Of a stretch of 32,066 nucleotides of DNA, positions 2,299 to 22,580 are shown in pieces. Both the position numbers and the translations under genes were made by a program. Numbering within the stretch: the first letter of the stretch is position 1; the number at the start of each line of letters is the position of its first letter. The DNA comes from Opitutia bacterium (GTDB lineage Bacteria; Verrucomicrobiota; Verrucomicrobiia; Opitutales; Seribacteraceae), in contig PBLJ01000013.1 of NCBI GenBank assembly GCA_002721705.1, positions 1-32,066 on the forward strand, in the 5' to 3' direction. The notes beneath the pieces are model-generated. The model was not told the DNA's origin, did no database searches, and worked only from the letters and a program-made list of their open reading frames with translations.

Positions 2299-2330
2299 GC
2301 AGAGCCGAAAAGGGACAGAGACGGAAGATA

Positions 2331-2366: not shown

Positions 2367-2383
2367 AGGGGAGCAACCGAGAT

Positions 2384-5500: not shown

Positions 5501-7427
5501 AAGATCCTGCGATTCGCTCGAAGAAGGAGTAACCGTCCATTTCCTGCTGGTCCGTAAGGCCGTCGCCATCCGAATCTTCACTGGTGAGGTCGGTCACGTT
5601 GATGGCAACGGCTTGGGTGGCAGAGACCGTGCCGTCGGACACGGTGACGGATACGGAATATACGTTGTTGCCTGCGGCGGAGGCGTTGGCCTCGTAGTCG
5701 GGAGCGGCGTTCCAGGTGAGCTCCCCGGTGTTTACGTTGAGGGTGAACTTGTCCGCGTCGGGGCCGGTTTTGGTATAGGTCAGGGCATCGCCGTCGGCAT
5801 CGGTGGCCCCTACGAGGAAGCTGGCCGAAGCATTGTTCTCGGCGGTGGTGAAGGTGGAGCCACCGGCAAAGACGGGAGCGTCGTTCACCCCGGCTACGTT
5901 GACGTCGAAGGAGTCGGCCACGACGAGCCCGTTGGAGGTGCCGGTCACCGTTACGGTGGCGGAGCCGTTTTGGTCGGGCTGGAAATCGAGGGTGAGGTAG
6001 TCACCCGCGATGGATAAGGTGACGAGGGAAGGGTCACTGGAACTGGCGGTCGTGGTGATGAGCGAGTTGTTGTTGTCTTCGTCGTCGAAAACGTCCGCCA
6101 AGGAGATGATGAAGTTGGAGGCGTCCTCGGTGGTGACGACGTCGGCCAGGGGGTTGAGCACGGTGGGCGCGTCGTCAACGACTTGCATGAAAGCCACGGT
6201 GAGGGTGCCGTTGCCGTCGGGAGTTCCGAAAAACGAAACGTCGAGGGTACCGTTGCCGTTGACCACCACGGTGGCCCCGAGGGTACCCGCGTCGGCCCCG
6301 GTGATGGAAATCGAAGGGGCGGGAGCAACATCGTTGAATCCCGAGCCAACCCCGGAGAGGTTGGCGGGAGCCTGCATCACTCCGTCGGCAATCGCCGCGG
6401 TGATGGCGCCGGTGCCGGAGGGGTTGCCCGTGAAGGAAAGTTCGAGGGTGCCGTTGCCGTTGATGGAGGTGGTGGCGGCGAGGGTGCCCTTGTCCGAGCC
6501 TGTAATGGTAACGGTAGGAGCGGCTTCGTTTGCCGAATAACCGGAACCGATGCCGGAGAGAGTGGTTTGCGGCAAAGCCAGGCCGCCGGGCGAAACCGAC
6601 ACGTCGACGGGGGTGGCGCTGCCGGCGTTGCCGGAGAACCCCATGTCGACCTTGCCGTCGCTGCCGCCGGCCGCGGCTCCCGCCACTCCGCCGACGGGAA
6701 CTCCACTCCGCGTGATGACCACTCCCGGTATCTCGTTTTCAAGGTAACCGGAGCCCTTGTCGTTGGCAGCCGGAATCTGGAAATAGGTGCCGTTGGCCGC
6801 GGAGACGGTATGAGTTCCCGTTTCGTCGGTGGCCGGCAAGGTGAAGGAAAGCGTACCGTCGCCAGCAACGGTCGCGGTGGTAGTGATGGTTGCTTGGGAA
6901 GGCTTGGTGACGGTGACGACGGGAGTCTCCGAAGTATCGTACCCCGAGCCTTGGCCGGTGAAGGAAGAGGTGGCGTAGTGCGGGGCGCCTGCTGCCACGG
7001 TAATATCAACGGCCGAATCATCGCCCGCATTGCCCGAGAAAGTGATGATGAGGGAACCGTTGGCTTGTCCCGTGGCGGTGGCGGTGATGCCGTTCACGAG
7101 TTGCCCATAGCGCTCCAGGGTGACTGCGGGCGTTTCCCCCTGGGCATAACCGCTCCCCGTGCCGGTGACGGTGGATATCACGCCGCCGGAGGGATAAAGC
7201 TGAAAAGTCGGCGTGCTGCCGCCCGGACCGGTGGCCTCGACCGTCTGGGCGCTCATGGAACCGGCAGCGGGCGTGAGCTGGAACGGGGTGACGGACCCAC
7301 CGTATTGCCCGGAAACGGTTTGGTTGGGGGTGGTCCCTCTGGAGCCGTTGACGGTAGCGGTATGGGTATTGTCGGCGAAAGTGGCAGCGGGAAGAAGCGA
7401 GGCAAGGAACAAGACGGGCTTGGTCAT
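2523..7427 (-). CDS. Giant secreted mosaic protein: GSGY repeats, cadherin, C-type lectin, LamG, InlB-like repeats
   Basis: The ATG at 7427 is chosen because it has a GGGAG Shine-Dalgarno 8 bases upstream and gives a clean signal peptide (MTKPVLFLASLLPAATFA); an ATG 26 codons earlier has neither. The product is 1634 residues. By rough residue position: five GSGY-type repeats of about 68 residues (90-410), a tandem-95/cadherin-like stretch (about 415-610), and a C-type lectin-like domain at 625-745 (GGHLATI, WLGAWD, NW-SGQPDN, YVLEK). Next come a DSDGDG calcium-type motif, LamG (785-1010), two InlB-like bacterial repeats (about 1017-1155), two cadherin-like domains separated by thrombospondin-type-3-like DSDGDG motifs, and an Fn3-like domain (about 1420-1520). 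The last ~100 residues are very aromatic (NWIYHADFGWLYL, SLGWLWT). It is probably an exported adhesin or carbohydrate-binding surface protein; the ligand is unknown. Confidence 0.9.
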   Translation of the reverse strand: MTKPVLFLASLLPAATFADNTHTATVNGSRGTTPNQTVSGQYGGSVTPFQLTPAAGSMSAQTVEATGPGGSTPTFQLYPSGGVISTVTGTGSGYAQGETPAVTLERYGQLVNGITATATGQANGSLIITFSGNAGDDSAVDITVAAGAPHYATSSFTGQGSGYDTSETPVVTVTKPSQATITTTATVAGDGTLSFTLPATDETGTHTVSAANGTYFQIPAANDKGSGYLENEIPGVVITRSGVPVGGVAGAAAGGSDGKVDMGFSGNAGSATPVDVSVSPGGLALPQTTLSGIGSGYSANEAAPTVTITGSDKGTLAATTSINGNGTLELSFTGNPSGTGAITAAIADGVMQAPANLSGVGSGFNDVAPAPSISITGADAGTLGATVVVNGNGTLDVSFFGTPDGNGTLTVAFMQVVDDAPTVLNPLADVVTTEDASNFIISLADVFDDEDNNNSLITTTASSSDPSLVTLSIAGDYLTLDFQPDQNGSATVTVTGTSNGLVVADSFDVNVAGVNDAPVFAGGSTFTTAENNASASFLVGATDADGDALTYTKTGPDADKFTLNVNTGELTWNAAPDYEANASAAGNNVYSVSVTVSDGTVSATQAVAINVTDLTSEDSDGDGLTDQQEMDGYSFFERIAGSFTWSQAKSDAESRGGHLATITSAAENAKVVAVANHGDWLGAWDAVQEGQWQWVTGESWGYANWKSGQPDNSSNEDYLHIYTSNADFGKWNDIQGHVPNGYVLEKTITTNPQLADSDGDGFIDSLESSLGSNASDRNSSPLDLGLVAHYRFDETSGSTAADSSGNGYDAILYNASNGPSTWVEGKVNGGIQLDGANDYLAIKNLNYTQAGQIPAVTIAAWIKTAASTGRKRIISFDRSEVWHFAVGVDSNPGKLHLATTDSRGSSSGTSDGYGQTVVSDNAWHLVAVSYDSATSLKKFYVDGVLDGSSSVHGNRALGSGTSRFGTIGAGNEDAAFNQHSSGSRGGFFNGALDEIRIYDRALTDVEIAALYQMENTPPASQYTLSLTADAGGSVTGDGNYSADANASIIATPDVGYHFTSWAGSGIADPSAATTTVLMDQNHSVTANFAINQYALTATGGAGGSASGAGTYSHDANASITAIPDVGHHFTHWTGSGIADPNAATTTVLMDQNRSVTAHFAVTNQPPTDLHLSSLTILENQPIGAIVGEFNATDPNDLTGTGSYTYTLVAGEGADWNSEYAIDANGTLVTGVTYDFEGENSDGDPTIGIRVQVTDDHNATFSKAFVLTILDDNDEDVDQDGLTEGQEEALGTSDLNSDTDGDGFPDADEVAEGSDPTSAESRPNWAPTEISLTPRTILENQPEGTLVGVFSTEDPDHNDTHVYALVDGSGSQDNSSFQIAGNALYALENFDFETKSSYNIRVRSTDAKGLKKRKSFTVQVLDAFIPGVETLAATKVKAASARLRGSLLDDGGLDLLEGGFVLSRSPDPERGKAGVTTFPGEPSGQGGFFIHKATGLSSGVNYYYRAYAGNAEGISYGEQVKFRTATSSDGLLGNAAIMPDSPNWRESPWFGSFFRANENWIYHADFGWLYLSGDDTDSIWVWSQSLGWLWTSKNVYPYLYRPQESNWYLFMKNVPGRTILFRYATGQWMDWNAEE

Positions 7428-7707
7428 TAGTGCCGCTCCCGAGCGAGAGCGCGCCGACGCACGCGCGTGAAGGAGATTCAAACTGTAGTGGGCAAACATG
7501 TGCACAAGGGGTATTAGCGAAAATCGCTGAAAATTAACATTTTATTATGAAAAAGTTTTAGTTCAAGAATGGATTCAAACCTCGAACGAAAGGGGCAACA
7601 AGACCCTGAAGTCGCTAACCAGCAATGGGTTGCGAAGGGAAACTCACCTCAAAAGCCAAGAAAGCCCAATGGCTTCGCGACCAGAACGAGGCAAAGGCTT
7701 GGTCAGC
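7428..7707. other. 280-bp intergenic region with an AT-rich core and a small palindrome
   Basis: No credible gene is present. The stretch 7530-7575 is much more AT-rich than its surroundings and probably holds the promoter of the downstream giant gene, but no -35/-10 pair with good spacing stands out. A perfect short inverted repeat AGCGA-AAA-TCGCT lies at 7516-7528, about 90 bases upstream of the ATG at 7427, and could be an operator or a leader hairpin. Confidence 0.4.
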
Positions 7708-10964: not shown

Positions 10965-11528
10965 TCAAAATTTTCCCCATTTCTCATCGAAACCAAGCTG
11001 ATGCACCCGATGAGTCTTCAACAAATCCTCTTCATGATGGACGTCGATTTCGGAAATGCGATCGTCCTCGAAACGCGTGGCGGTGATATCGAAGGGGTCA
11101 CCATAGTTCTCCAAGCGTTCGCGGGTCTGGGCCCAAACGGCGAAAGGCACGGAGAGGGCTTCGCCGGTTTGCCCGGCCAACTCGATGGCGCGGGACACCA
11201 CGTCCGTGTCGCAAATGGGGAAATTGCAATTGTAGTTTACGTGAAGGTCGCATGGATAATGCTCGAGGAGGTGTTGAAAAACGGGAATGGAGGCGACCTT
11301 GTCCCCGGCCAACTCCTCGGGTCTGCGCAAAATTTCCGCCCCCGTGTCGAAGCAGGTTCGGGCAACCAACTCGCTTTCGGTCGAAACGACCACTTGGTCG
11401 ACCTCGGAACAGTCCTGCAGAAAGGCCACTGCTCGACGCACCAAAGGCACGCCGTCGAAGGGCAAGAGGTTCTTGAAGGGCAAACGCTTGCTTCCCAGGC
11501 GAGCGATCACTGAACCGACGATCCTCAT
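10965..11528 (-). CDS. CMP-nonulosonate cytidylyltransferase-like protein (PseF candidate)
   Basis: The product is 187 residues. The N-terminus MRIVGSVIARLGSKRLPFKN carries the nucleotide-binding loop of acylneuraminate cytidylyltransferases (A-R-x-G-S-K-R-x-P-x-K-N). VVVSTESE and DVVSRAI follow at the expected places, and DVHHEEDL near the end matches the closing D-x-x-x-x-E-D-L motif. In the pseudaminic pathway this enzyme (PseF) activates the nine-carbon sugar with CTP. At 187 residues it is shorter than the roughly 230 usual for PseF or NeuA, so an SpsF-type relative is also possible. It is transcribed divergently from the pseC-led operon across a 102-bp spacer, which supports a shared pathway. 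No frameshifted extension was found. Confidence 0.75.
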   Translation of the reverse strand: MRIVGSVIARLGSKRLPFKNLLPFDGVPLVRRAVAFLQDCSEVDQVVVSTESELVARTCFDTGAEILRRPEELAGDKVASIPVFQHLLEHYPCDLHVNYNCNFPICDTDVVSRAIELAGQTGEALSVPFAVWAQTRERLENYGDPFDITATRFEDDRISEIDVHHEEDLLKTHRVHQLGFDEKWGKF

Positions 11529-11630
11529 GAAAGGCGCCCCAAGTCAGGTAAAAAGTGAGTCATTTTCATCCCACTGCATAGCAATTCCGATTCCATCTCG
11601 CAACGAAAACGCTTGAAAGAGGGTTTTCCC

Positions 11631-12824
11631 ATGGATTCCCTAACTACCTGCATGGAGACGATCCCTTATTCCAGACAGTGGATCGACGAGGAAGACGTGG
11701 AAGCCGTCTGCCGCGTCCTCCGCTCCGATTGGGTAACCCAAGGCCCTACCTTGGCAAGCTTCGAGAACGCCTTGGCCAAACGGGCGGGCGTGAAGCGAGC
11801 AGTGGCGGTTTCCCACGGAACGGCGGCCCTGCACCTGAGCTATGCGGCTCTTGGGGTCGAGAAAGGTTCCGTTGGCATCACAACCCCCATCACTTTTGCC
11901 GCGACCGCCAACGCTTTCCGCTACTGCGGCGCCGAAGTTCGGTTCTGCGACGTGGATCCGCTCACCGGCAACATGGATCCCGCTTCGCTTTCTCAAGTCA
12001 TCGAGGAAACGTCGCTCGATCGCGATAAAACCAACTTGGTCGTTCCCGTGTCTTATGCGGGACGGTTGGCGCCTCTTGATAAAATCGAGGAAGTGGCGAC
12101 GAAGGCCGGTTGCCAGGTGGTGGAGGACGCCGCCCACTCGCTCGGCTCCTATGGGCAGGGGGGCATGAGCGCGAGCGCATCGTGCGAGAATAGTGTCTCT
12201 GCGGTCCTGAGCTTTCATCCAGTCAAGCATCTCTGCACCGCGGAAGGCGGAGCGGTGGTGACCAACGACGATGCCTTGGCCGAGCGGATGAGTTGCTTGC
12301 GAAGTCATGGCATCTCCCGTTCCTCGATCGAGGGAGAGAACAGCACGAACATGCCCGGGTGGCATTACGAACAAAAGGAGCTGGGATGGAACTACCGCAT
12401 GACGGACTTGCAAGCGGCCCTTGGCTTGGGGCAGTTGGACAAACTTGATTTTTTCCTGGAAAGGAGACGGGCCTTGGCCTCCCGTTACGGAGAAGCCCTC
12501 GCCCAAGCTCCTTTCAGTGAGTTCCTCGATCTTCCTCCTTCGGAAGAAGGTCATGCCCATCACCTCTACGTCGTGTTGTTCAAGGATCCCGCTCTTCGGG
12601 ATTCTTGTTATGAGTTTCTGAAGAAACGAGGTATCCATTGCCAAGTTCATTACATCCCGGTCTACCGCCACCCTTACTACGAGGGCATCCTCGGCAGGCA
12701 GCGCCTGCCTGGGGCCGAATCCTTTTTTTCCCGTTGCCTCAGCATTCCCTTGTTTCCCAAGATGACCGACGAAGAGCAAGAACGGGTGCTGGAGGAACTC
12801 GCGGCCTTTCACGGCGCCGCTTGA
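11631..12824 (+). CDS. pseC: PseC-type UDP-amino-sugar aminotransferase (DegT/DnrJ/EryC1 family)
   Basis: The ATG at 11631 has AGAGGG 7 bases upstream and gives 397 residues; a TTG 18 bases earlier is less likely. The product is a PLP-dependent sugar aminotransferase that in the pseudaminic pathway aminates C4 of the PseB product using glutamate. Visible family features are IPYSRQ-I-EED at the N-terminus, SHGTAALHL, PITFAATANA, EDAAHSLGS and the PLP-lysine motif SFHPVKHLCTAEGGA with the lysine at about residue 199, then RSHGI and NYRMTDLQAALG. The SFHPVKH form is typical of PseC and related NDP-sugar transaminases. It is the first gene of a plus-strand operon with the GNAT and ATP-grasp genes; 11 bp separate it from the GNAT start. 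A legionaminic-type or other amino-sugar pathway cannot be fully excluded, but PseB and PseI partners favour pseudaminate. Confidence 0.9.
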   Translation: MDSLTTCMETIPYSRQWIDEEDVEAVCRVLRSDWVTQGPTLASFENALAKRAGVKRAVAVSHGTAALHLSYAALGVEKGSVGITTPITFAATANAFRYCGAEVRFCDVDPLTGNMDPASLSQVIEETSLDRDKTNLVVPVSYAGRLAPLDKIEEVATKAGCQVVEDAAHSLGSYGQGGMSASASCENSVSAVLSFHPVKHLCTAEGGAVVTNDDALAERMSCLRSHGISRSSIEGENSTNMPGWHYEQKELGWNYRMTDLQAALGLGQLDKLDFFLERRRALASRYGEALAQAPFSEFLDLPPSEEGHAHHLYVVLFKDPALRDSCYEFLKKRGIHCQVHYIPVYRHPYYEGILGRQRLPGAESFFSRCLSIPLFPKMTDEEQERVLEELAAFHGAA

Positions 12825-12835
12825 AACCGTTTTTC

Positions 12836-13423
12836 ATGAGCGCCACGGGATACAGCTTGCTGGAGGGCTTCGACGGAAGGTTCCGGGAATACGAGATCAC
12901 CTCCGTGAGGATGACGGACGCCTTGCCCATCATGCGGTGGAGAAACGAGCAAATCGACGTCCTGCGCCAATCCGCTCCACTTGAGCCCGATGAACAGCTC
13001 CGTTATTTTCGCGAAGTGGTGGCACCCACGTTCGGGATGGAACGACCTCCCATGGTGATCCTCGCGTACCTGCTGAACGGAATCCTCATAGGATATGGCG
13101 GCATCGTCCACCTGGACTGGAAAGCGAAGCGGGGAGAGGTTTCCTTCCTGCTTAATCCCGAACGGACGGAGGACAAGCAATCGTACGGCCGTGAAATGGG
13201 CGTTTTCCTTACTCTGCTGAAGCGGCTGGCGTTCAAGCAGCTCGAGCTCAACCGCCTGACCACGGAAGCCTACGGAAACCGCACTTGGCACGTGCAAGCG
13301 ATCGAGGCCAATGGTTTCAAACAGGAAGGTATCCTCCGCAAGCATGTCTGCAAAGGAGGAGAGATGGTGGACGCTCATCTCCACGGATTTCTCCGCGAGG
13401 ATTTCAAAGAAGATGAGTTCTAG
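12836..13423 (+). CDS. GNAT-family N-acetyltransferase, probable PseH-like amino-sugar acetylase
   Basis: The ATG at 12836 lies 11 bp after the pseC stop and gives 195 residues; longer in-frame extensions overlap pseC and are not needed. The protein fits the RimJ/RimL-type GNAT fold: an N-terminal MRWRNEQI motif, strands VILAYLLNGILIGYGGIVHL and RGEVSFLLNPE, an acetyl-CoA-loop region SYGREMGVFLTLLKRLAF, and the closing AIEANGFKQEGILRKHV. In pseudaminate synthesis PseH acetylates the C4 amino group made by PseC, and the position right after pseC supports that job. Substrate choice cannot be read from the sequence. It overlaps the ATP-grasp gene by 11 bp, so the three genes are translationally coupled. 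Confidence 0.8.
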   Translation: MSATGYSLLEGFDGRFREYEITSVRMTDALPIMRWRNEQIDVLRQSAPLEPDEQLRYFREVVAPTFGMERPPMVILAYLLNGILIGYGGIVHLDWKAKRGEVSFLLNPERTEDKQSYGREMGVFLTLLKRLAFKQLELNRLTTEAYGNRTWHVQAIEANGFKQEGILRKHVCKGGEMVDAHLHGFLREDFKEDEF

Positions 13424-14396
13424 CCCGCAAACGCCGGCCCCTCGTATCCTGTTTACCAGTTTGTCGAGGAAGACGTCCCTCTACGATTTCGTGCTCGAGC
13501 AAGCTCGCGCTTTCCATCCGGAAGCAGAGGTGATCGGTGGAGACAGCAACCCCGATTGCCCGGGACGGACAAGGGTCGAGGAATTTATCGAAACCCCTCC
13601 CTTGGACCAAAGTTCAGCCAACGAATTCGCCGACTTTTGCGCAGAAAACGGTTTCACTCACTTGATACCCACGCGAGACGGCGAGTTATCGTTTTTCGCG
13701 GAAGCTCGCGACGTTTTGCTGGCAGCGGGAGTGCCTGTCATGGTCAGTCCGCCGGACACCGTGATGGTCTGCCTGGACAAGTTCCTATTCGCGTCCAAGG
13801 CAAGCGAACTGGGATTTCCCGCGATCCCAACCGCGGAGACCCCTTCGTCGCTGGAGGCGGAACGTTTTGTCGTGAAGGAACGTCATGGTTCCGGTTCACG
13901 TGGAATCCATCTCGGTCTCTCCGCGGAAGAAGCGGCCCAACGAGCAAGCGGCATGGAAGCACCTGTTTTCCAGCCTTACTTGGAAGGAAGGGAGCTAAGC
14001 GCCGACCTTTACGTCGATCGATCAGGCCAAACCCGCGGTGTCGTTCTTCGCTGGCGAGACTTGGTGGTAGACGGCGAATCAAAGGTAACCACCACCTTTC
14101 GCAAAGTCGAATGGGAGCGAGATCTTGGAGACCTCGCCGCCGGCATCGGTTTGCGAGGCCATGGACTGGTCCAAGCAATCGTGGACGAGGAATACCAATT
14201 GCGCGTCCTCGAAACCAATGCTCGCCTTGGAGGCGCCACTCCCCTCGCCCTCTCCTGCGGCCTGCAAAGCATCGAATGGTTCCTGAAGGAATCGGCCGGT
14301 CAGGACCTGGAGACTGTCGAGCCCTTCACTTTCCCCTCAGGCCACCGGCTGGTCCGGGACGAGGAAGGTCGCGACGAGTTCAGCGGCATGGAGTAA
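13413..14396 (+). CDS. ATP-grasp carboxylate-amine ligase-like enzyme in the nonulosonate cluster
   Basis: The ATG at 13413 overlaps the end of the GNAT gene by 11 bp and gives 327 residues. The N-terminus PRILFTSLSRKTSLYDFVLEQ and THLIPTRDGELSFF form a pre-ATP-grasp domain. The core has FVVKERHGSGSRGI (nucleotide-binding lysine and flexible loop), FQPYLEGRELSADLYVD, and the metal-binding motif VLETNARLGGATPLALSCG. These match carbamoyl-phosphate-synthase-like ATP-grasp proteins, which join a carboxylate to an amine or other nucleophile through an acyl phosphate. The substrate is unknown. Operon position after pseC and the acetyltransferase suggests it decorates the nonulosonate or its precursor, for example by adding an acyl or aminoacyl group; that is inference. 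It converges on pseI with only 15 bp between the stops. Confidence 0.85.
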   Translation: MSSSPQTPAPRILFTSLSRKTSLYDFVLEQARAFHPEAEVIGGDSNPDCPGRTRVEEFIETPPLDQSSANEFADFCAENGFTHLIPTRDGELSFFAEARDVLLAAGVPVMVSPPDTVMVCLDKFLFASKASELGFPAIPTAETPSSLEAERFVVKERHGSGSRGIHLGLSAEEAAQRASGMEAPVFQPYLEGRELSADLYVDRSGQTRGVVLRWRDLVVDGESKVTTTFRKVEWERDLGDLAAGIGLRGHGLVQAIVDEEYQLRVLETNARLGGATPLALSCGLQSIEWFLKESAGQDLETVEPFTFPSGHRLVRDEEGRDEFSGME

Positions 14397-14411
14397 AGGA
14401 GCCTTCCTCGC

Positions 14412-15458
14412 CTATACCCAGTCGGCCTCGCCCAAGGGGTGCCCAATCGAAAAGTCGCCGGTGGCCGATTTGCCAAGAATTTCTTCCCAACGGGCAGGAT
14501 CCAAGCCGTCCCCCGGTCGCGCCACGCGCAGGTTCTCGCTGGTGAGAGTTTCTCCTCTGCGAATCGGCTGGGCCACCAAGATGGATCGACGAAACCGGCG
14601 AACAGGGGAATCCGGCTCGACCCCTGCCCGAGAAGACCCTAGGGCGGCATGCGCCAAACGCACCGCTGCAGTCATTTCCTTGAACTCGTCGGGTTCCATG
14701 GAAAACCCTGCGTCAATCGCCCCATCTTCTCGGCCGAGAACCAAATGCTTCTCAATCAACCTAGCTCCCAAGGCAGTAGCCGCGACCGCAGCCAAATGTC
14801 CGGGAGAATGATCGGACAAGCCGACTTCCACCTCGAATTCGGCAGCCATCTCGGGCATGGCGGAGAGGTTGAAATTCCGAGGATCGGCGGGATACTCACT
14901 GACGCACTGGAGCAACAGGACGAGAGGGCAGCCCTCCCCTTTCAAGGTTTCCACCGCGGAAGCGATCTCCGAATGAGTCGAAACCCCCACGCTGGCCGCC
15001 ACGGGTTTACCCGTCCGGGCAACCTTACGCAACAACGGCGCATGGTTGAGCTCGAAGGAAGCGATCTTGTGCAAGGGCGGGTCAATGGTGTCCTCCAGGA
15101 AATCGACCGCCGTTTCGTCGAAAGGCGAACTGAAAAGGAACAGGTCGCGTTGGGCCGCCTTCTCGGCCAAGGGCCCATGCCAATCCCAAGGAGTCATGGC
15201 CTCCGAGTAGAGATCGTGCAGGTAGCGACCCGCCCAAAGGCCTTCCTCGATCAGAAAACGATCGTCGCGAGCCTCCACCGTAATGGTATCCGGACGGTAG
15301 GTCTGCAGCTTCACGGCATCCGCTCCGCTGTCCGCGGCGGCGTCGACGAGGTCGTAGGCTCGCTCGAGGTCGCCCCCATGGTTGCCGGAAAGCTCGGCCA
15401 CGAGGAAAGGAGCCGCTTTTTCGTCGGATAAACGATCTAGGCAAACATCGGGAGTCAT
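14412..15458 (-). CDS. pseI: Pseudaminic acid synthase (NeuB/PseI family)
   Basis: The product is 348 residues, the usual size. This enzyme condenses phosphoenolpyruvate with a six-carbon 2,4-diamino sugar to make a nine-carbon nonulosonate. Visible features are FLVAELSGNHGGDLERA (PseI-type; NeuB proper has AEIGxNHNG), GADAVKLQTYRPDTIT, SSPFDETAVDFLE, KIASFELNHAPLL, EYPADPRNFNL, GLSDHSPG and EKHLVLGREDGAIDAGFSMEP. The C-terminal SAF (antifreeze-like) domain runs from about 285, with RRSILVAQPIRRGE. The AELSxNH and DGAIDAGFS patterns favour pseudaminic over sialic or legionaminic acid synthase. The usual STGM loop reads ASVGVS here. It follows pseB after 25 bp on the same strand, so pseB-pseI is an operon. 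Confidence 0.92.
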   Translation of the reverse strand: MTPDVCLDRLSDEKAAPFLVAELSGNHGGDLERAYDLVDAAADSGADAVKLQTYRPDTITVEARDDRFLIEEGLWAGRYLHDLYSEAMTPWDWHGPLAEKAAQRDLFLFSSPFDETAVDFLEDTIDPPLHKIASFELNHAPLLRKVARTGKPVAASVGVSTHSEIASAVETLKGEGCPLVLLLQCVSEYPADPRNFNLSAMPEMAAEFEVEVGLSDHSPGHLAAVAATALGARLIEKHLVLGREDGAIDAGFSMEPDEFKEMTAAVRLAHAALGSSRAGVEPDSPVRRFRRSILVAQPIRRGETLTSENLRVARPGDGLDPARWEEILGKSATGDFSIGHPLGEADWV

Positions 15459-15483
15459 CGCGGGCGGGACCGACCCCGAAACC

Positions 15484-16482
15484 TCAGGATCCGGTCTTTT
15501 CGGGCAAGTAATCGCTCAAGAGCTTGGCCAGCCTTTCGCGATCGAGAAAGTTTTCGTTGCGATCGCTGGAATAGCAAAACCCTGTGGAACAAGAAGCGCC
15601 TCCCAGAATGCCGATCCTATTCCCCCAAAAGGCCTGTACCGGCTGAATCACGAAATGGGTGTCGAAATCCAAGACGTTGTGGGCCTCGTCCTCGGGAATG
15701 AGGACTTCGTGCATTTTCTCGCCGGGTCTCAACCCGATTTCGTCCCATTCGCAATCGGGAGCCAAGACCTCGATGAGATCCTCCAGCGAACAACTGGGAA
15801 TTTTCGGTACGAACAATTCTCCGCCCACCATGCGAACCAAGGACTGCTGAACGAAACTGACGCCCTCGTCGAGGCTAAGCAAAAAGCGGGTCATCTTCGA
15901 ATCCGTCACCGTCAGCTTGCCCGTTTCGCGTTGCTTGACGAACAGGGGAATGACACTACCCCGACTACCGATGACGTTGCCATAGCGAACCACGGAAAAA
16001 ATAGTTCCCGAGTCGCCGGCGTAACTGTTGGCCGCGATGAACACCTTGTCGGAACAAAGCTTGGTGGCCCCGTAGAGATTGACCGGATTAACCGCCTTGT
16101 CGGTACTCAGGGCGATCACTTTCTCGACCCCGCAGGTAAGCGATGCCTCCACCACGTTCATGGCCCCGTCGATGTTCGTCTTGATGAACTCGTGTGGGTT
16201 GTATTCCGCCGCGGGCACTTGCTTGAGAGCCGCCGCATGGACGACGTAGTCGACTCCCCGCATGGCGCGTAGAAGGCGTTGGCGATCTCGCACGTCACCT
16301 AGGAAAAAACGCAGGGCGGGATCCTGAAATTCGGGTTTGGCCGACATTTCCGACTGTTTCCACTCGTCGCGTGAATAAATGATCACGCGCCGCGGTTCGT
16401 AATCGCGCAAAACACTCTGGATGAAACGAGAGCCGAAAGATCCCGTTCCACCCGTAACCAAAATTGACTTTCCGTTGAGCAT
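15484..16482 (-). CDS. pseB: UDP-GlcNAc 4,6-dehydratase (inverting), PseB
   Basis: The chosen ATG at 16482 begins MLNGKSILVTGGTGSFGSRF, the standard PseB N-terminus; a TTG three codons earlier is also open. The product is 332 residues. It is a short-chain dehydrogenase/reductase that converts UDP-GlcNAc to the 4-keto-6-deoxy L-arabino sugar, the first pseudaminate step. It shows the NAD(P)-binding GGTGSFG (residues 11-17), HAAALKQVP, and the catalytic T-D-K (about 127-129) with Tyr137 and Lys141 in the YGATK motif. SVVRYGNVIGSRGSVIP and the LRPGEKMHE loop follow. The TDK triad and the SRGSVIP segment distinguish PseB from ordinary dTDP-glucose dehydratases. It starts a two-gene minus-strand operon with pseI and is divergent from the Maf gene. 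No Shine-Dalgarno is evident. Confidence 0.94.
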   Translation of the reverse strand: MLNGKSILVTGGTGSFGSRFIQSVLRDYEPRRVIIYSRDEWKQSEMSAKPEFQDPALRFFLGDVRDRQRLLRAMRGVDYVVHAAALKQVPAAEYNPHEFIKTNIDGAMNVVEASLTCGVEKVIALSTDKAVNPVNLYGATKLCSDKVFIAANSYAGDSGTIFSVVRYGNVIGSRGSVIPLFVKQRETGKLTVTDSKMTRFLLSLDEGVSFVQQSLVRMVGGELFVPKIPSCSLEDLIEVLAPDCEWDEIGLRPGEKMHEVLIPEDEAHNVLDFDTHFVIQPVQAFWGNRIGILGGASCSTGFCYSSDRNENFLDRERLAKLLSDYLPEKTGS

Positions 16483-16509
16483 GAAGGACAAACGACAATA
16501 GTGATTCCC

Positions 16510-16562: not shown

Positions 16563-16591
16563 TTGACGCGGGCGTCGGGGCAGACGATACA
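16563..16591 (+). promoter_or_regulatory. Candidate sigma70 promoter for the Maf gene
   Basis: TTGACG at 16563-16568 is followed after exactly 17 bases by GATACA at 16586-16591. The -35 matches consensus at 5 of 6; the -10 is weak (3 of 6). Transcription would then begin close to the second in-frame ATG at 16600, giving an almost leaderless message. This is a consensus-scan judgement only. Confidence 0.3.
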
Positions 16592-18156
16592 TGAGCGTCA
16601 TGCCCACTCACTGGCTGTCTGAAAACGATACTCCCGGATCCACCACCGCCGTACTTCTGGGTCCCGTCGATGCAACCGAACTAAAGACTCAGTGCGAGAA
16701 ACACCCCGCCGGCGTGCTTTGGATCGCGGTGGAAGGCGACGCCCAAGCGCCCTCACTGCCTCCCTCGAACCTCACGCAGGTAATGGTAAACGCATCGGGC
16801 GGCCATTTTCCTCAAGAAACCCTGCAAGATTTTCTCGGCCTCAATTACGAGGTCATGCCCAGTGTCAGGGTGAGCTCCGCTATTAATCCCGACAGCCCCG
16901 TCTACCTGAACGCGTTGAACCTCGTCATGCAGCAAACGGAGGCGACCTTGCGGGCTCGGCGCACCCGTTCGGAAACCGGCCCTTTGCGCCAGCAAAACGT
17001 TTTCCGCAACCTCCCGGGGTACCTGCAGGCAAGGGTGCCGGGCTCTTGGCGAGGGGCGGCGGAAGGCTCCTTGGCGGTAGTAGTCGGGGCGGGGCCCTCC
17101 CTGGACGTCACCCTACCCCTTCTGGTGGAAACGTGCAGCGATGCGGTGGTCATTGCCGCCGACAGCGCCATCAAGGCCTTGGCCAAGCATGGGGTTTCGC
17201 CGGACTTGGTGGTGAACATGGACCCGGAGAAAACACTCGCCAGCTGCGACTCCTCGACCCTTTGCCCTGGCATCGCCGTCCTCTCTTCTCAATCTCATCC
17301 CAGTTGGCGAGCTGCATGGAGAGAAAACGTCCGCTATCTTTCGGGCCGTGTCCTGACGGAGGACTGGCTGGCAGTGAAAGGAGTCGCCAAGACCGATTTA
17401 CTGGCAGTCAACAACGCCGGACTCTCCGCCTTCCTGCTGGCGGATTACCTGGAGGCATCCGTCGTTTTGCTGGCAGGTATGGATCTCTCGGGCAGCGATG
17501 ACGGCAAACGACGCTACGCCGAGTCGACGGGGAGAAACGCGCAGGTGGGCATGGCCGCGCATTATAAGAAAATACCCGGCAACCACGAAGATACCGTATC
17601 GACTCCTTTTCTCTCGGACTGGAGTGAAACGAACGAGCATTGCGCCGCGATTGCGCGAAGAAGGCAGGTGGTGAATCTCAACGATCGGGGGGCGCGGCTG
17701 GAGGGATCCACGCTGATTCATCCGGACAAATTCGAGGAACTGGAAAACGCCTTGTCGGAAAACCTCACCCCCTTCGATCGAACAGGCAATAAGTTAAGCC
17801 AGGAACAAGATCGAGCGAACTCCTGGGATCAAGCCCTGCGTTCCACCTTGGCCAACCGTTGCGATGAGATTGGGCGCCGCCTGCAACCATTGCTCTCGGG
17901 AACCCACTCGCGCATCGACAAATTGCGTTTCCTTCGTGAATTGATGGCGAATCAGGAGCTAGCCACCTTGCTGGGCGATTTCTCCTTTGCCGTCATGCCC
18001 GGCATCATGCCAGGCAAAGAGCCTAGCGAAAGCCAGCTCGACCTTTGGCTCCGCCAACTCCGTCAGACGTTGTGGATACTGGAAGACGCCTTGCTGGAAA
18101 ACGACGCCCCGGAGGAATTCCTGAGACGGTTCTTGGCCGAAAGCCTGACTTCCTAG
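16591..18156 (+). CDS. Maf/DUF115-family motility accessory factor (putative flagellin nonulosonate transferase)
   Basis: The product is 521 residues from the ATG at 16591; a second ATG three codons later (16600) is also plausible. The family signature is VVVGAGPSLD at about residues 162-171, then VVIAADSAIKALAKHG, SPDLVVNMDP, and later LLAGMDLSG, the core of the MptE-like/DUF115 domain. In flagellated bacteria Maf proteins transfer pseudaminic or legionaminic acid onto flagellin in the cytoplasm, which is the expected use of the sugar made by the neighbouring pse genes. The C-terminal ~170 residues are helical and without recognised motifs. It is divergent from pseB across a 108-bp spacer and converges on the aminotransferase gene, sharing a CTAG where both stops lie. 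No flagellin gene is in this window, so the acceptor is inferred. Confidence 0.88.
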   Translation: MSVMPTHWLSENDTPGSTTAVLLGPVDATELKTQCEKHPAGVLWIAVEGDAQAPSLPPSNLTQVMVNASGGHFPQETLQDFLGLNYEVMPSVRVSSAINPDSPVYLNALNLVMQQTEATLRARRTRSETGPLRQQNVFRNLPGYLQARVPGSWRGAAEGSLAVVVGAGPSLDVTLPLLVETCSDAVVIAADSAIKALAKHGVSPDLVVNMDPEKTLASCDSSTLCPGIAVLSSQSHPSWRAAWRENVRYLSGRVLTEDWLAVKGVAKTDLLAVNNAGLSAFLLADYLEASVVLLAGMDLSGSDDGKRRYAESTGRNAQVGMAAHYKKIPGNHEDTVSTPFLSDWSETNEHCAAIARRRQVVNLNDRGARLEGSTLIHPDKFEELENALSENLTPFDRTGNKLSQEQDRANSWDQALRSTLANRCDEIGRRLQPLLSGTHSRIDKLRFLRELMANQELATLLGDFSFAVMPGIMPGKEPSESQLDLWLRQLRQTLWILEDALLENDAPEEFLRRFLAESLTS

Positions 18157-19385
18157 TCGTTTTCCCGCGCCATCTCGGCCAAGGCCGCCTCGGCGGCCAC
18201 CAAGGCCTCGTCGATGGCAGCCTCGTCGTGAGCTCCGCAAAGGAACCAATTGTGATGAGGATGAAAAAACAGCCCCTTCTCGGCGCACGATTCACAAAAT
18301 CGCTGCATCGAATATAGGTTTTCGTCTTCCTCGAAACAGGGAAACGGCATGGCTGGCGGCCCCGTCATGGTCAAGGGAAGGCCATGTTTGCTCGCATGCT
18401 CCTCCAGTCCCGAGCCCAATCGACGGCCAAGCTGGTCCAGCTTTTCAACCACTCCCCTGTCGGGTCCCAATTCCAGGCATTTCAACGCAGCCGCCATCGC
18501 AACCGCGTCGTTCCAGCAACTGCCAGTCAAGAACACCTCGCGAGCGGCGCGTCGGAATTCCTCCCGTCCCAAGCAGGCGGAAATGGCATACCCATTGCCT
18601 AATGCCTTCGAATAACAAGAAAGGTCCGGGGTGAATCCAAAGGCGCGATGAGATCCGCCATCGTGTAAACGAAAGCCAGCTCGCACGTCGTCGAGGATCA
18701 GGGCGATGCCTCTCGAGCGACAAGCTGACTCCACCTCTTCCCAAAAGCCGTCCGCAGGCATTTCCGAGGCCCCGAAAGCCGCATGATGATAAGGGGTCAA
18801 GATGACTGCGGCGATCTCTTCCCCACATTCCTTCAACAAGGAATGAAAGCCATCCAAGTCGTTCCAGGCGAATTCCCGGATGGCGGCGCGATCCTCCGGG
18901 ATGCGTCCCCCGAAACCCGGGTCGCACCAAGCATCCACGCCATGGTAAGCCCCTTTTGCCTTCAAGACGATGCTGCGGCCCGTGTGCTCACGAGCAACCC
19001 GAGTGGCCCAAGTCGTGACGTCGGATCCATTCTTCGCGAAAACCGCCCACTGGGCGAAATCGATCCTCTCGGTCAAGGCTTCGGCGAGCTCGACCATACG
19101 CTCGGTCGGCTGGTTCAAGACGGCTCCCTCACGGCGCTGACGTTCCGCCGCTTCCTCAATCTCGGGATCTCCAAAGCCGAACAGAGACGAGCCGTATCCG
19201 CACAAAAAATCAAGCCACTCATTGCCATCCACGTCCATGAAGCGGCAACCTTTGCCGGACGCAGCGTAATTCGGAAAACTACCCGGCAAGCCACCAGCGG
19301 GGGCGAGGTGACCGTAGATGCCTCCCGGCACCACTTTCGCGGCTCGCAGAAACAACTCCTCCGATCGTGACCTTTCGCGTTTCAT
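18153..19385 (-). CDS. Class III PLP aminotransferase (glutamate-1-semialdehyde aminomutase-like)
   Basis: The ATG at 19385 lies 1 bp beyond the stop of the preceding gene and gives 410 residues; a 36-codon upstream extension inside that gene is unlikely. Motifs match the HemL-like fold: AAKVVPGGIYG, GNEWLDFLCGYGSSLFG, FAKNGSDVTTWATRVAREHTGR, GAYHGVDAW, ILDDVRAGFR (PLP-ring aspartate) and the PLP lysine in CYSKALGNGYAI at about residue 260. True HemL has different substrate-loop residues and usually stands with heme genes. This member belongs with versions found in surface-sugar and secondary-metabolism clusters, so the substrate is open: an amino transfer or 1,2-amino shift on an unknown compound. 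It ends tail-to-tail with the Maf gene and is last of a coupled operon. Confidence 0.85.
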   Translation of the reverse strand: MKRERSRSEELFLRAAKVVPGGIYGHLAPAGGLPGSFPNYAASGKGCRFMDVDGNEWLDFLCGYGSSLFGFGDPEIEEAAERQRREGAVLNQPTERMVELAEALTERIDFAQWAVFAKNGSDVTTWATRVAREHTGRSIVLKAKGAYHGVDAWCDPGFGGRIPEDRAAIREFAWNDLDGFHSLLKECGEEIAAVILTPYHHAAFGASEMPADGFWEEVESACRSRGIALILDDVRAGFRLHDGGSHRAFGFTPDLSCYSKALGNGYAISACLGREEFRRAAREVFLTGSCWNDAVAMAAALKCLELGPDRGVVEKLDQLGRRLGSGLEEHASKHGLPLTMTGPPAMPFPCFEEDENLYSMQRFCESCAEKGLFFHPHHNWFLCGAHDEAAIDEALVAAEAALAEMAREND

Positions 19386-19386
19386 T

Positions 19387-20076
19387 TCAAGTCGGGAAAA
19401 CCAAGTTCCGAGACGCTCTGTCCGCGACGTACCCGACAGCCTCGGCAAGCGGAATGCGTCCCCGCACCTCGATTTCCCCGTTAGCCGGAGCAACCAAGGG
19501 ATCCAGGCCCGTTTCCACCGCTCGAACAGCTACCTCCAAGTCGCGAAAGGTAACGCGAGCGTCTGCATCCTCCGAAGGCTCGCCGGATCCGGACCGGTAA
19601 CCTCCTGCATCCATGCGAAACCAAGCCGAGACGTCGGTATTGGCGACCGTGAAGGAGACGCAGCCGGAACTTTCCCTAGCCATCGCCTCGACGCATTTCA
19701 AGTCCAACGCGGCATAAGCTTCGGCCGCCGCCAATCCCGCCCGTAAGCCGACCGCGGCCTTGACCTCGGGCCCGCACCCGCCTTGCACCGCCGAAGTCAT
19801 GCCCCGCAAGACCCCGACCGCCCGAAGGCTTTGCACGGGGCTCGACAAGAAAGGCCCGATGCGTGGCCACGCAAACCCTGTCGTGACCGCCTCGAGAAAG
19901 GTCGCTTCATCGGAAAAGCAAAGCCCCCCGGGCATAATGCGGATTTCGCCGAGTTCGGTTTGACTGGCCTGCAGGCCAAAGCCTTTCCCAAGACGCCGAG
20001 ACCACTCCTCCGAGGAAGCTTCCAACACATGCCTGTATGCGGTGGCCAAAAGGGAACGATCGTTTGCCATGATCAT
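19387..20076 (-). CDS. SCP2-like sterol/lipid-carrier-domain protein
   Basis: The product is 229 residues (or 227 from the ATG at 20070). The N-terminal ~125 residues are not recognised; they contain MPGGLCFSDEATFLEAV and a glycine-rich stretch. Residues about 130-220 follow the SCP2 pattern: CVSFTVANTDVSAWFRMDAG, DADARVTFRDLEVAVRAV, and ANGEIEVRGRIPLAEAVGYV, i.e. a beta-sheet half, then a helix, then the G-x-I-x-x-x-G-x-x-x-L closing motif. SCP2 domains form a hydrophobic pocket that holds lipids or other apolar ligands. Its ATG overlaps the stop of the glycosyltransferase by 4 bp (ATGA), and its own stop is 1 bp from the aminotransferase start, so the three are strictly coupled. A lipid-related function is inferred from the fold and from the MGDG-synthase-like neighbour. 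Confidence 0.7.
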   Translation of the reverse strand: MIMANDRSLLATAYRHVLEASSEEWSRRLGKGFGLQASQTELGEIRIMPGGLCFSDEATFLEAVTTGFAWPRIGPFLSSPVQSLRAVGVLRGMTSAVQGGCGPEVKAAVGLRAGLAAAEAYAALDLKCVEAMARESSGCVSFTVANTDVSAWFRMDAGGYRSGSGEPSEDADARVTFRDLEVAVRAVETGLDPLVAPANGEIEVRGRIPLAEAVGYVADRASRNLVFPT

Positions 20077-21206
20077 CGAGAGGCAACGATTGAGTGGAGC
20101 TTTTCAAGCAAGCGCAAGGGTGTTTCGTCCGAGGCATAAGCCACTGGCCTCGTCCCCTTCGAGAAATACCGGTGGACCTCGCCCGGGTTTTCACAGGTGG
20201 GAACCAATCCCGTCCTCTTTTTCCAGAGGTTCAAGTTGTTCTGCTCCTGCGGCATGATGCCTCCGGACACGTCGAACAGCATGGGAGTGCCGCAAACAAT
20301 CGCTTCGGAAGTGGTGCCAGCCCCGGGGCGGGCGTAGAGCAAGTCCGCGGAACGAAGCAAAGGCGCCATCTCGGAGGCCCCGATGGTAGGCAAGGCCCGC
20401 AAAGTAAACCCATGGCCTTCAGGCAAGGCTTCCAAATTTCGCAAAGTACGATCGTTCGATCCGCAAAGGGCCACCACTTGGGCCGGTTTGCCCATGGAGA
20501 GGAAGGGTCGGGTCGCCTTGAGATGACGGTTCACGCCATTCGCGCCGGTGCCGAGAACCAAAAGAGGCAACCACGGGTTCAAGTCCCATTTGCGACGCAC
20601 GAAGCTGGCTTCATCGTCAGGTGGCAACCTGTGATAGAAAGAGGGCCGCAGGAGAAAGCCTGATCGAAACGTCTTGCTTGCCTGCATGCCGCGACTGCGG
20701 GCGGCTTCGCAAGTTTCCTCGACCGGACCCACGAAAAGATCGGCCTCGGGATTGATCCAGTGTCGACTGAAGCCAGGTCCGTCGGCCAATTCGCCGCAAT
20801 AGATCACGAAAGCCGGTGGTTTGGACGCCATGGCCTGCATGGCAAGGTCGCGATAGCCATGGTTGAGGTGCGCATGAACGCTGAAGACGACGTCGGGCTC
20901 GAAAGAACGGACGATCTTACGAAAACCGCGACTGCCCAGGATGCTCCCGGCGTTGCGATGCAAGTTCGCTCTCTCGAGAAAAGGGAAGTATAGCTGGTGA
21001 AGTCGCGGACAGGTTTTCTGTATGGCGTTGTACAGCCAAGTCCCCAAACGGTAGAACCTGGAACCGTCTTCAAGAGGTCGAACAATACGCACTTCCGCCT
21101 GCAAGCCGGCTTGCTTGGCAGCCTCGCTTTCCGCCCAAAGCCGCAAGGCTCGAGCACGAGAGTCATGTCCGCCGCCGGTGCTGGATGTGAGTACGAGTAT
21201 CTTCAA
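20073..21206 (-). CDS. GT-B glycosyltransferase, MGDG synthase/GT28-like
   Basis: The product is 377 residues from a TTG at 21206, the only sensible start: translation begins MKILVLTSSTGGGHDSRA, the family N-terminus. MGDG synthases and processive diacylglycerol glucosyltransferases share the S-x-T-G-G-G-H motif (lipid-acceptor loop). They also share the N-terminal domain with FEPDVVFSVHAHLNHGY and a C-terminal UDP-sugar-binding half, here LLVLGTGANGVNRHL, VVALCGSNDR, LRSADLLYARPGAGTTSEAIVCGTPML and MPQEQNN. The family puts a hexose on a lipid at the membrane face. Which lipid and sugar cannot be read here. The GT-B fold is shared with PseG, but PseG N-terminal motifs are absent. It starts 32 bp after the DUF1015 stop and overlaps the SCP2-like gene by 4 bp. 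Confidence 0.82.
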   Translation of the reverse strand: MKILVLTSSTGGGHDSRARALRLWAESEAAKQAGLQAEVRIVRPLEDGSRFYRLGTWLYNAIQKTCPRLHQLYFPFLERANLHRNAGSILGSRGFRKIVRSFEPDVVFSVHAHLNHGYRDLAMQAMASKPPAFVIYCGELADGPGFSRHWINPEADLFVGPVEETCEAARSRGMQASKTFRSGFLLRPSFYHRLPPDDEASFVRRKWDLNPWLPLLVLGTGANGVNRHLKATRPFLSMGKPAQVVALCGSNDRTLRNLEALPEGHGFTLRALPTIGASEMAPLLRSADLLYARPGAGTTSEAIVCGTPMLFDVSGGIMPQEQNNLNLWKKRTGLVPTCENPGEVHRYFSKGTRPVAYASDETPLRLLEKLHSIVASR

Positions 21207-21238: not shown

Positions 21239-22489
21239 TTAGCCACTCTCCAGTGAACGAACCACGAGCCCACTACGCAGCTTAGGTTCAAACCAAGTTG
21301 TCTTGGGAGGCATGATTTGGCCGGCGTCGGCGATGGCCAGCAAATCCTCCATGGAAACGGGATGCATGAGGAATGCAACCGCCATTTCTCCCGAGTCCAC
21401 TCTGCGAGCAAGTTCGAGAGGCCCGCGTATACCGCCTACGAAGTCGATGCGCTTGTCGCGCCGCAAATCGGCAATTCCCAAAATATTGTCGAGAACCCGT
21501 TCCGACAACAAGGTGACGTCAAGTCGCCCGATTGGATCGGTCCTGTCCCAACTGCCATCCTTAACCTGAAGCTTGCGCCAATGGCCGCCCAAGTAGAGTC
21601 CGAACTCACCCCTTCCTGCGGGTCGCACCGGTTCCGCCATGGGCTCCCCTACCTCGAATTCCCCCGCAAGTTGCCCTAGAAATTCCTCCTCGGACAAGCC
21701 GTTGAGGTCGCGGACAACCCGGTTGTAATCGAGAATCTCGAGTTGGTCGTCGGGAAAGACGACCGCTAAAAGATAATTGTACGCCTCGTTGCCGTGGTGG
21801 TCGGGGTTGTTTTCACGGCGTTCCTTGCCCACGCGGGCAGCGGCTGCAGTGCGATGATGGCCATCGGCCACGTAGAAAGAAGGCACTTCGGCAAAAAGCG
21901 ATTCCAATCGGGAAGTGGTTTCGGCATCGTCCAAGGTCCACCATTCGTGCGTCACAGCGTCCTCGGCAGTGAAGGAAAATTCGGGAACGGCTTGCGTGCG
22001 GGAGGAGACCAACTCGTTGATTTCGGCTTGGGATGGGTAAGCGAGAAAGACCGGTTCCGCTTGGGCGTTCAGCTCCCGCACGTGGTTTACGCGATCGTTC
22101 TCCTTGTCCGGTCTGGTCAATTCATGCTTCTTGATAAGGTCGTTGTAGTAATCCTCCACCGAGGCCTGCCCCACCACGCCGGTTTGGCTTCGTCCGTTCA
22201 TGGTCAAGCGATAGAGGTAAAAGCAAGGTGCGGAATCCTGCCTGAAATGACCTTCCGCCTGCAAACGATCCCAGTTCGCCCGCCCCTGTTGATATACTTC
22301 TTGTGAATAGGGATCTACTCCGTCCGCCAGTTCAATCTCCGGTCGAATGACGCGGAGAAAGGAAAGTTCGTTGTCACCGGCCAATCCCTTGGCCTCGACA
22401 GCGTTGACGACATCGTAGGGAGGGCATGCCACGGCGGGCGCGCTCTCAGGCTGGGGACGAATCCCTCTAAATGGTTGAAACACGGACAT
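21239..22489 (-). CDS. DUF1015 family protein
   Basis: The ATG at 22489 gives MSVFQPFRGIRPQPE, the family N-terminus; a 16-codon upstream extension looks like a false signal sequence. The product is 416 residues, the usual length. Family features are VACPPYDVVNAVEAK, NELSFLRVIRPE, PCFYLYRLTMNGRSQTGVVG, KKHELTRPDKENDRVNHV, FYVADGHHRTAAAARV and YNYLLAVVFPDDQLEILDYNRVV. The ADGHHR motif resembles the active-site region of ParB/sulfiredoxin-like proteins. The function of DUF1015 is not established; it is widespread and often lies near serine-biosynthesis genes, which is not the case here. It follows the groEL terminator, so it probably has its own promoter in 22490-22580, and it heads the minus-strand run into the glycosyltransferase operon. 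Confidence 0.88.
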   Translation of the reverse strand: MSVFQPFRGIRPQPESAPAVACPPYDVVNAVEAKGLAGDNELSFLRVIRPEIELADGVDPYSQEVYQQGRANWDRLQAEGHFRQDSAPCFYLYRLTMNGRSQTGVVGQASVEDYYNDLIKKHELTRPDKENDRVNHVRELNAQAEPVFLAYPSQAEINELVSSRTQAVPEFSFTAEDAVTHEWWTLDDAETTSRLESLFAEVPSFYVADGHHRTAAAARVGKERRENNPDHHGNEAYNYLLAVVFPDDQLEILDYNRVVRDLNGLSEEEFLGQLAGEFEVGEPMAEPVRPAGRGEFGLYLGGHWRKLQVKDGSWDRTDPIGRLDVTLLSERVLDNILGIADLRRDKRIDFVGGIRGPLELARRVDSGEMAVAFLMHPVSMEDLLAIADAGQIMPPKTTWFEPKLRSGLVVRSLESG

Positions 22490-22580
22490 AGCTGATACGG
22501 AACTGAACAAGCAAAGGGTAAGAGCGAAGACAAGCAAATGCGATGCAAAGTCGAAATTCAGGCACCGGGTTTACCATCAC

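What the first reader, a model, noticed from the sequence alone, without database searches (positions are those of the whole stretch)
18153..21206. Coupled lipid-glycosyltransferase / SCP2-like / HemL-like aminotransferase module
Three genes are joined by a 4-bp overlap and a 1-bp gap. A diacylglycerol-type GT28 enzyme, a lipid-pocket SCP2-like protein and a class III aminotransferase have no standard joint pathway. Their tail-to-tail contact with the Maf gene hints at a glycolipid or an aminated lipid-linked compound, possibly linked to surface or flagellar modification.
Basis: partly seen in the sequence, partly recalled or inferred. Interest (0 to 1): 0.6.

Follow-up and report, generated by a model that had tools for sequence, protein, structure and literature searches.

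The report
Conserved lipid glycosyltransferase–carrier–aminotransferase operon
Three tightly packed genes, for a lipid-sugar transferase, a tandem lipid-carrier protein and an aminotransferase of the kind that acts on sphingolipid-like molecules, form a real, widely conserved unit in this bacterial order and probably help make a sugar-bearing aminolipid of the cell envelope, a pathway not described in the papers I could search.

Summary
The trio is real: the glycosyltransferase (GT) and carrier genes overlap by 4 bp, carrier and aminotransferase (AT) are 1 bp apart, and the AT stop overlaps the Maf stop. It is conserved in order across the family and many other Opitutales families.

The AT is not HemL. 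It groups with FumI, which moves the C2 amine of the sphinganine analogue hydrolysed fumonisin; the genome has a separate HemL. The middle protein is a tandem SCP2-fold protein. The GT is closest to MGDG synthase and processive diacylglycerol glucosyltransferase.

SCP-AT is the older core: adjacent in 58 of 68 testable loci over many phyla. In Opitutales the trio tracks an SPT-like oxoamine-synthase cluster (ACP, KAS, SDR, GT4). It lies beside that cluster in three genomes; families without the trio carry a related GT inside it.

Flagellar and pseudaminic-acid neighbours are real but limited to this family.

Best reading: a glycosylated, sphingolipid-type aminolipid pathway; substrate and product are inferred. 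In other phyla the pair often travels with a split transketolase, hinting at an alternative sphingoid route.

The parts
20073..21206 (-). GT: MGDG-synthase/UgtP-like glycosyltransferase, 377 aa, first gene of the trio (TTG start)
   Evidence: NCBIfam diglucosyl-DAG synthase 51.6 bits, far below its 500-bit cut-off; GGGHD, HAHLNHG, ARPGAGTTSEA, MPQE conserved; best PDB MGD1 4wyi 1e-32, processive DAG glucosyltransferase 9wde 6e-25
19387..20076 (-). SCPa: tandem SCP2-fold lipid-carrier-like protein, 229 aa; ATGA overlap with the GT stop
   Evidence: 3 of 25 orthologues match PF02036, best 4.8e-6; AF2 pLDDT 94.1, pTM 0.90; Foldseek top hits SCP2 proteins, E 5e-5; N half homologous to C half, hhalign E 9.5e-15
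18153..19385 (-). AT: FumI-like class III aminotransferase, 410 aa (ATG at 19383-19385; PLP lysine in YSKALGNG; HPHHNWF motif)
   Evidence: (FumI 6hbs 449 bits vs HemL 236)
16591..18156 (+). Maf/PseD-like gene, tail to tail with AT; context only
   Evidence: neighbour across much of family f1, absent in genus g2 loci and outside the family
15484..16491 (-). PseB, UDP-GlcNAc 4,6-dehydratase (inverting); context only
   Evidence: TIGR03589 482.7 bits, above the 407.75 cut-off
14412..15458 (-). PseI, pseudaminic acid synthase; context only
   Evidence: TIGR03586 414.2 bits, above the 340.25 cut-off
21239..22537 (-). DUF1015 protein, upstream of GT, same strand, 32 bp gap; family-specific neighbour
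   Evidence: PF06245 1.4e-106; upstream of GT throughout the inspected f1 loci, not seen outside f1

Best explanation
The trio is a lipid-modifying operon working in, or next to, a sphingolipid-type (alpha-oxoamine synthase) glycolipid pathway. Inferred order of events: an SPT-like PLP oxoamine synthase with its dedicated ACP-dehydratase, KAS and SDR makes a long-chain amino-ketone or amino-alcohol. The tandem SCP2 protein holds a long-chain intermediate and presents it to the FumI-like aminotransferase, which exchanges a keto and an amino group on the chain (alanine/pyruvate type chemistry). The MGD1/UgtP-like glycosyltransferase adds a sugar from a nucleotide donor to the lipid. The product would be a glycosylated aminolipid of the envelope. 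Shown by computation: operon structure, conservation, family assignments, the SCP2 fold, the FumI relationship, and co-distribution with the SPT-like cluster. Inferred: that the AT substrate is a lipid ketone/amine, that the carrier feeds the AT, that the GT acceptor is the same lipid, and the product.
For: AT profile hits FumI (6hbs) at 449 bits against 236 for the best HemL and shares its HP(H/Y)HN(W/M)FL.AH, DDVRAGFR and KNGSD motifs; FumI falls among the AT family and HemL outside. FumI moves the 2-amino group of hydrolysed fumonisin, a sphinganine-like chain, to pyruvate (PMC2933618). SCP2 fold. GT closest to MGD1 and processive DAG glucosyltransferase. SCP-AT adjacent in 58 of 68 loci with room upstream. 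The trio lies divergently beside ACP-KAS-SDR-GT4-SPT-like genes in G093, G095 and G109. In families without the trio, a 33-40% identical GT sits inside that cluster (L193-L197). Co-distribution outside family f1: SPT-like gene in 21/21 AT genomes vs 20/71 others; any GT vs SPT-like 37/40 against 4/52. Own genome lacks the cluster, but its syntenic contig C54 (16,362 bp) ends about 0.9 kb past the conserved block, and its genus mate G001 has the cluster.
Against: The oxoamine synthase scores below every curated cut-off (355-370 bits vs 640 for SPT, 316-329 vs 426 for BioF), so serine/acyl condensation is not proven. The cluster is absent from the window's own assembly. Only three genomes place trio and cluster side by side. 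Genomes are related, so the Fisher values overstate independence, and SPT-like calls were separated from KBL-like ones by score and span, partly by hand. SCP-AT also occurs without the GT in other phyla, so the AT role need not be sphingolipid synthesis. FumI is catabolic and a long branch. The L127 contig has HemB directly upstream of SCP-AT.
Confidence: 0.5

Rival explanations
1. Surface or flagellar glycan module: the trio helps modify or anchor a pseudaminic-acid-type glycan (flagellin or polysaccharide), with Maf, PseB and PseI as true partners.
For: In family f1 the locus reads FlgK-like, FlgL-like, FliW, CsrA, DUF1015, GT, SCP, AT, Maf, PseB, PseI in several genomes; in genus g2 the trio runs straight into PseB-PseI on the same strand. 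The genome has 8 flagellin-type hits. IMCC26134 (L155) has RmlD-like and GDP-Man/NDP-sugar dehydratase genes after AT.
Against: No Pse or flagellar neighbours beside the inspected trios outside f1. Two f1 genomes without flagellin hits (G002, G017) still have the AT. The carrier fold and the FumI relationship point to a lipid rather than a sugar substrate.
Confidence: 0.2
2. The AT is a glutamate-1-semialdehyde aminomutase for heme, and the other two genes are incidental.
For: Fold-level similarity to HemL; HemB directly upstream of SCP-AT in one contig, L127.
Against: Scores at about half of the HemL cut-offs or less; a separate HemL in the own genome and second HemL-range matches in most trio genomes; HemL outside the clade at 100/100; the HemL C-terminal region is replaced by HPHHNWF.
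Confidence: 0.03
3. Catabolic module: the AT deaminates long-chain amines such as sphingoid bases or related natural compounds, as FumI does, with SCP as substrate scavenger and the GT unrelated.
For: The closest characterised enzyme, FumI, is degradative (PMC2933618); SCP-AT occurs without the GT in several phyla.
Against: The GT overlaps the carrier gene and is co-conserved with it in Verrucomicrobiota; no dehydrogenase, ligase or beta-oxidation genes were seen to recur beside it; near-universal presence in family f1 fits a core function better than a catabolic trait.
Confidence: 0.12
4. Ordinary glycerolipid glycosylation (MGDG/DGDG type), with the AT and SCP serving something else.
For: GT best matches are MGD1 and processive DAG glucosyltransferase; a GpsA-like gene lies shortly upstream of GT in L082 and L085.
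Against: GT and AT presence almost coincide (53 both, 2 GT only, 6 AT only); related GTs lie in the SPT-like cluster.
Confidence: 0.12

Closest known systems
FumI, aminopentol aminotransferase of Sphingopyxis (PDB 6hbs/6hbv)
   Same: Class III fold, shared PLP lysine region, DDVRAGFR and HPxHN motifs, 449-bit profile match; grouped with the AT family in the tree
   Different: FumI is catabolic, acts on hydrolysed fumonisin, and is a long branch
SCP2-type lipid carriers (PF02036; UbiJ, human SCP2, Yarrowia SCP2)
   Same: Fold of the C-terminal half, C-terminal helix, weak PF02036 matches in some orthologues
   Different: Two homologous halves in tandem, highly divergent, adjacent to a class III aminotransferase in most genomes
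MGDG synthase (MGD1) and processive diacylglycerol glucosyltransferase (UgtP/YpfP)
   Same: Full-length profile match, conserved donor-site and N-terminal GGGH motifs
   Different: PF06925 and PF04101 matches stay under their cut-offs; linked to an oxoamine-synthase cluster rather than to glycerolipid genes
Bacterial sphingolipid clusters (Caulobacter spt-acpR-cerR-aasR; SgaAB PKS-type sphinganines)
   Same: SPT-like oxoamine synthase with a dedicated ACP and a reductase
   Different: Here with KAS, an ACP-FabZ fusion and two glycosyltransferases, and with the SCP-AT pair; cerS and aasR were not searched for
HemL (glutamate-1-semialdehyde aminomutase)
   Same: Class III fold, about 30% identity
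   Different: Separate gene in the same genome, different C-terminal motif, outside the AT clade

Membership tests
HemL / GSAM | Score above the NCBIfam equivalog cut-off | tested here: not met
   196.7 vs 527.3 (TIGR00713); 204 vs 398 (PRK00062)
HemL / GSAM | Sole HemL-type gene of the genome | tested here: not met
   separate HemL at G000:C24 groups with HemL 6w80
FumI-like class III aminotransferases | Sequence clade with FumI apart from HemL | tested here: met
   HemL outside at 100/100, exact position of FumI inside uncertain (long branch)
FumI-like class III aminotransferases | Activity on a long-chain C2 amine with pyruvate | not testable with these tools
   Needs enzyme assay
SCP2 lipid carriers | SCP2 fold | tested here: met
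   pLDDT 94; the matches with E<1e-3 are SCP2 proteins or alkylsulfatase-type proteins carrying an SCP2-like domain
SCP2 lipid carriers | PF02036 match of the window protein | tested here: not met
   none for the window protein; 3 of 25 orthologues match, best 4.8e-6
MGDG synthase / UgtP glycosyltransferases | Pfam/NCBIfam curated cut-off | tested here: not met
   PF06925 21.1 vs 25; PRK13609 51.6 vs 500
MGDG synthase / UgtP glycosyltransferases | Full-length profile homology to solved members | tested here: met
   4wyi 1e-32 over profile 1-374
SPT-based sphingolipid pathway | Serine palmitoyltransferase over cut-off | tested here: inconclusive
   best family is SPT (336-394 bits) but the cut-off is 640
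SPT-based sphingolipid pathway | Dedicated ACP next to the synthase | tested here: met
   ACP or ACP-FabZ in the cluster of relatives
SPT-based sphingolipid pathway | Ceramide synthase (cerS) and acyl-ACP synthetase (aasR) | not tested
   No search made for these genes
Flagellin glycosylation (Maf/Pse) | Linked to Maf/Pse genes beyond close relatives | tested here: not met
   only in family f1

The most novel reading that the evidence does not exclude
A second, SPT-independent route to sphingoid-type bases. In Bacillota, Bacteroidota, Myxococcota, Bdellovibrionota and Actinomycetota relatives the SCP-AT pair is joined by a split transketolase and, in nearly all, a second tandem SCP2 protein (13 loci). 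Transketolase could move a two-carbon ketol unit onto a long-chain aldehyde to give a 1,3-dihydroxy-2-ketone, and the FumI-like AT would aminate C2 to a sphinganine-like 2-amino-1,3-diol. 8 of 13 such genomes show no SPT-family match at E<=1e-50, against 0 of 11 SCP-AT genomes without the transketolase (Fisher p 0.002; draft genomes, related taxa). The Opitutales trio would be the glycosylating variant of the same enzyme core.
Probability: 0.12. Interest if true: 0.85.

Novelty: new variant of a known kind. Interest (0 to 1): 0.6.

Why it matters
SPT-like genes were recently counted in Verrucomicrobiota genomes from the Black Sea (PMC11334938), but what these bacteria build with them is unknown to me. 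The trio names three concrete candidates (a glycosyltransferase, a lipid carrier and a lipid aminotransferase) for an aminoglycolipid pathway in an abundant marine order. A tandem-SCP2/FumI-like pair conserved over many phyla suggests a general lipid-amination step with its own carrier. If the transketolase version makes sphingoid bases, organisms without SPT could make such lipids, which would change how sphingolipid capacity is read from genomes. FumI-type enzymes also have practical use in removing fumonisin, and this family widens their known natural context.

Tried and rejected
HemL assignment: rejected. Hopanoid side-chain amination: squalene-hopene cyclase occurs in the own genome but in only 4 of 59 AT genomes and is slightly anti-correlated. 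PseG as identity of the GT: no PseG model appears among its NCBIfam matches, and the full-length match is to MGD1/UgtP. Nonulosonate amination (AT as a Pse/Leg enzyme): not supported outside f1. Second-SCP (SCPb) orthologue in Opitutales: only weak hits, nearly all back to the trio's own SCP. Literature searches for a transketolase-aminotransferase sphingoid route, a class III AT-SCP operon and Verrucomicrobia sphingolipid clusters found no description; the library is open-access only, so absence is weak evidence.

Full report
Observation. On the minus strand, GT (20073-21206) and the carrier gene (19387-20076) share 4 bases, the carrier stop and the AT start are one base apart, and the AT stop overlaps the Maf stop. 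The AT most likely starts at ATG 19383-19385 (410 aa), where its orthologues start; the TTG at 19493 is only the first start codon of the open frame.

Conservation. Searching 134 genomes of the order, AT orthologues (at least 43% identity) are in 59, trio-type GTs in 55, and both in 53. The carrier diverges fast, yet is detected in 54 genomes, nearly always next to AT or GT. Gene order GT>SCP>AT holds in the family and in several further families; in families f22, f3 and f11 GT+SCP and AT lie apart. In 80 AT loci drawn from a collection of one genome per species, the carrier lies directly upstream of AT in 58 of 68 with enough sequence, and the GT is also there in 33 of these; by record title these 33 are Verrucomicrobiota.

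Aminotransferase. HemL models score well below cut-off. The profile of 28 orthologues finds FumI (6hbs) at 1e-133 and HemL only at 7e-69, and FumI shares the C-terminal HPxHN..L.AH and the DDVRAGFR motifs. In a maximum-likelihood tree, FumI falls within the family and HemL, including the one from this genome, lies outside at 100/100; FumI is a long branch, so its exact place is unsure. FumI transfers the 2-amino group of hydrolysed fumonisin B1 to pyruvate (PMC2933618), and fumonisins are sphinganine analogues (PMC7711896).

Carrier. The window protein has no Pfam hit, but three orthologues match SCP2. AlphaFold2 with the orthologue alignment gives pLDDT 94, and Foldseek returns SCP2 proteins and SCP2-bearing alkylsulfatases. 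The two halves of the family are homologous to each other (E 9.5e-15), so it is a tandem SCP2 protein; in this family the N-terminal half is shortened.

Glycosyltransferase. The profile matches MGD1 end to end and processive diacylglycerol glucosyltransferase over most of its length, and MurG only weakly. Donor-site residues are conserved. The acceptor cannot be read from sequence.

Pathway context. In three genomes of families f21 and f24 the trio faces a cluster of ACP, KAS, SDR, GT4 and an SPT-like oxoamine synthase. In families f4 and f13 without AT or SCP, a GT 33-40% identical sits inside that cluster (L193-L197). In genomes with the trio elsewhere, the inspected clusters (L200, L203, L205, L209-L212) lack the GT. 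SPT-like genes are in 49 of 59 AT genomes and 24 of 75 others; outside family f1 the figures are 21 of 21 and 20 of 71. These counts ignore shared ancestry and rest on a score-based split of SPT-like from KBL-like proteins. The window's own genome shows no SPT-like gene, but the syntenic contig ends about 0.9 kb past the conserved block, some 3-4 kb short of where the gene lies in its genus mate, so an assembly gap is the simplest explanation. Dedicated ACPs for SPT are known in Proteobacteria (PMC11324152), PKS-type sphinganine synthesis with an SPT-active oxoamine synthase is known (PMC12134224), and SPT-like proteins have been reported in 22 Verrucomicrobiota MAGs (PMC11334938).

Flagellar and Pse context. 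In much of family f1 the trio stands between FlgK-like, FlgL-like, FliW, CsrA, DUF1015 on one side and Maf, PseB, PseI on the other. PseB, PseC and PseI in the window pass their equivalog cut-offs. Nothing of this appears beside the inspected trios outside the family, so I treat it as lineage-specific clustering, perhaps of envelope and surface functions.

Other phyla. In 13 loci the pair comes with both subunits of a split transketolase and, in nearly all, a second tandem SCP2 protein, in either of two orders. Eight of those 13 genomes have no SPT-family hit at E<=1e-50; all 11 checked SCP-AT genomes without transketolase do. This suggests, but does not show, that transketolase stands in for SPT.

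Verdict. The unit is real and conserved, the heme reading is practically excluded, and a lipid-amination/glycosylation role linked to a sphingolipid-type pathway is the best-supported explanation. Chemistry, direction of transamination and product remain inferred.

Noticed in passing
10965-16491: The window holds a near-complete CMP-pseudaminic acid set (PseB, PseC, PseI above equivalog cut-offs, PseH-like, PseF-like, Maf), but no PseG was seen among the proteins scanned; an ATP-grasp protein (13311-14396) lies in the cluster.
   Followed up: partly
10965-11528: PseF-like cytidylyltransferase is short (187 aa) and matches only positions 4-99 of the 222-position PseF model; the genus mate G001 has a clustered ORF of 185 aa (L064), so the short form is probably real.
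   Followed up: partly
L146:9029-13966; L183:5053-9768; L160:6522-11287: SCP-AT joined to a split transketolase and a second tandem SCP2 protein in several phyla.
   Followed up: partly
L074:1-8462; L067:12602-19901: In other genera of the family FlgK-like, FlgL-like (with CBM5/12), FliW and CsrA lie directly upstream of DUF1015-GT-SCP-AT.
   Followed up: yes
L071 (G023:C5): The Maf gene beside the trio is broken into three ORFs (160, 96, 127 aa), while the trio and PseB-PseI are open.
   Followed up: no
L086:7490-17925: SPT-like cluster of f24 is followed by KpsM-like, KpsT-like and Wza-like export genes, hinting that the lipid could anchor an exported polysaccharide.
   Followed up: no
L200:12732-13646: ACP-FabZ fusion protein near the SPT-like gene in the genus mate G001.
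   Followed up: partly
L127:6734-9774: HemB (ALAD) immediately upstream of SCP-AT in one contig; only case seen.
   Followed up: no
1-7505: Two very large repeat-rich proteins, probably surface or secreted; not annotated here.
   Followed up: no
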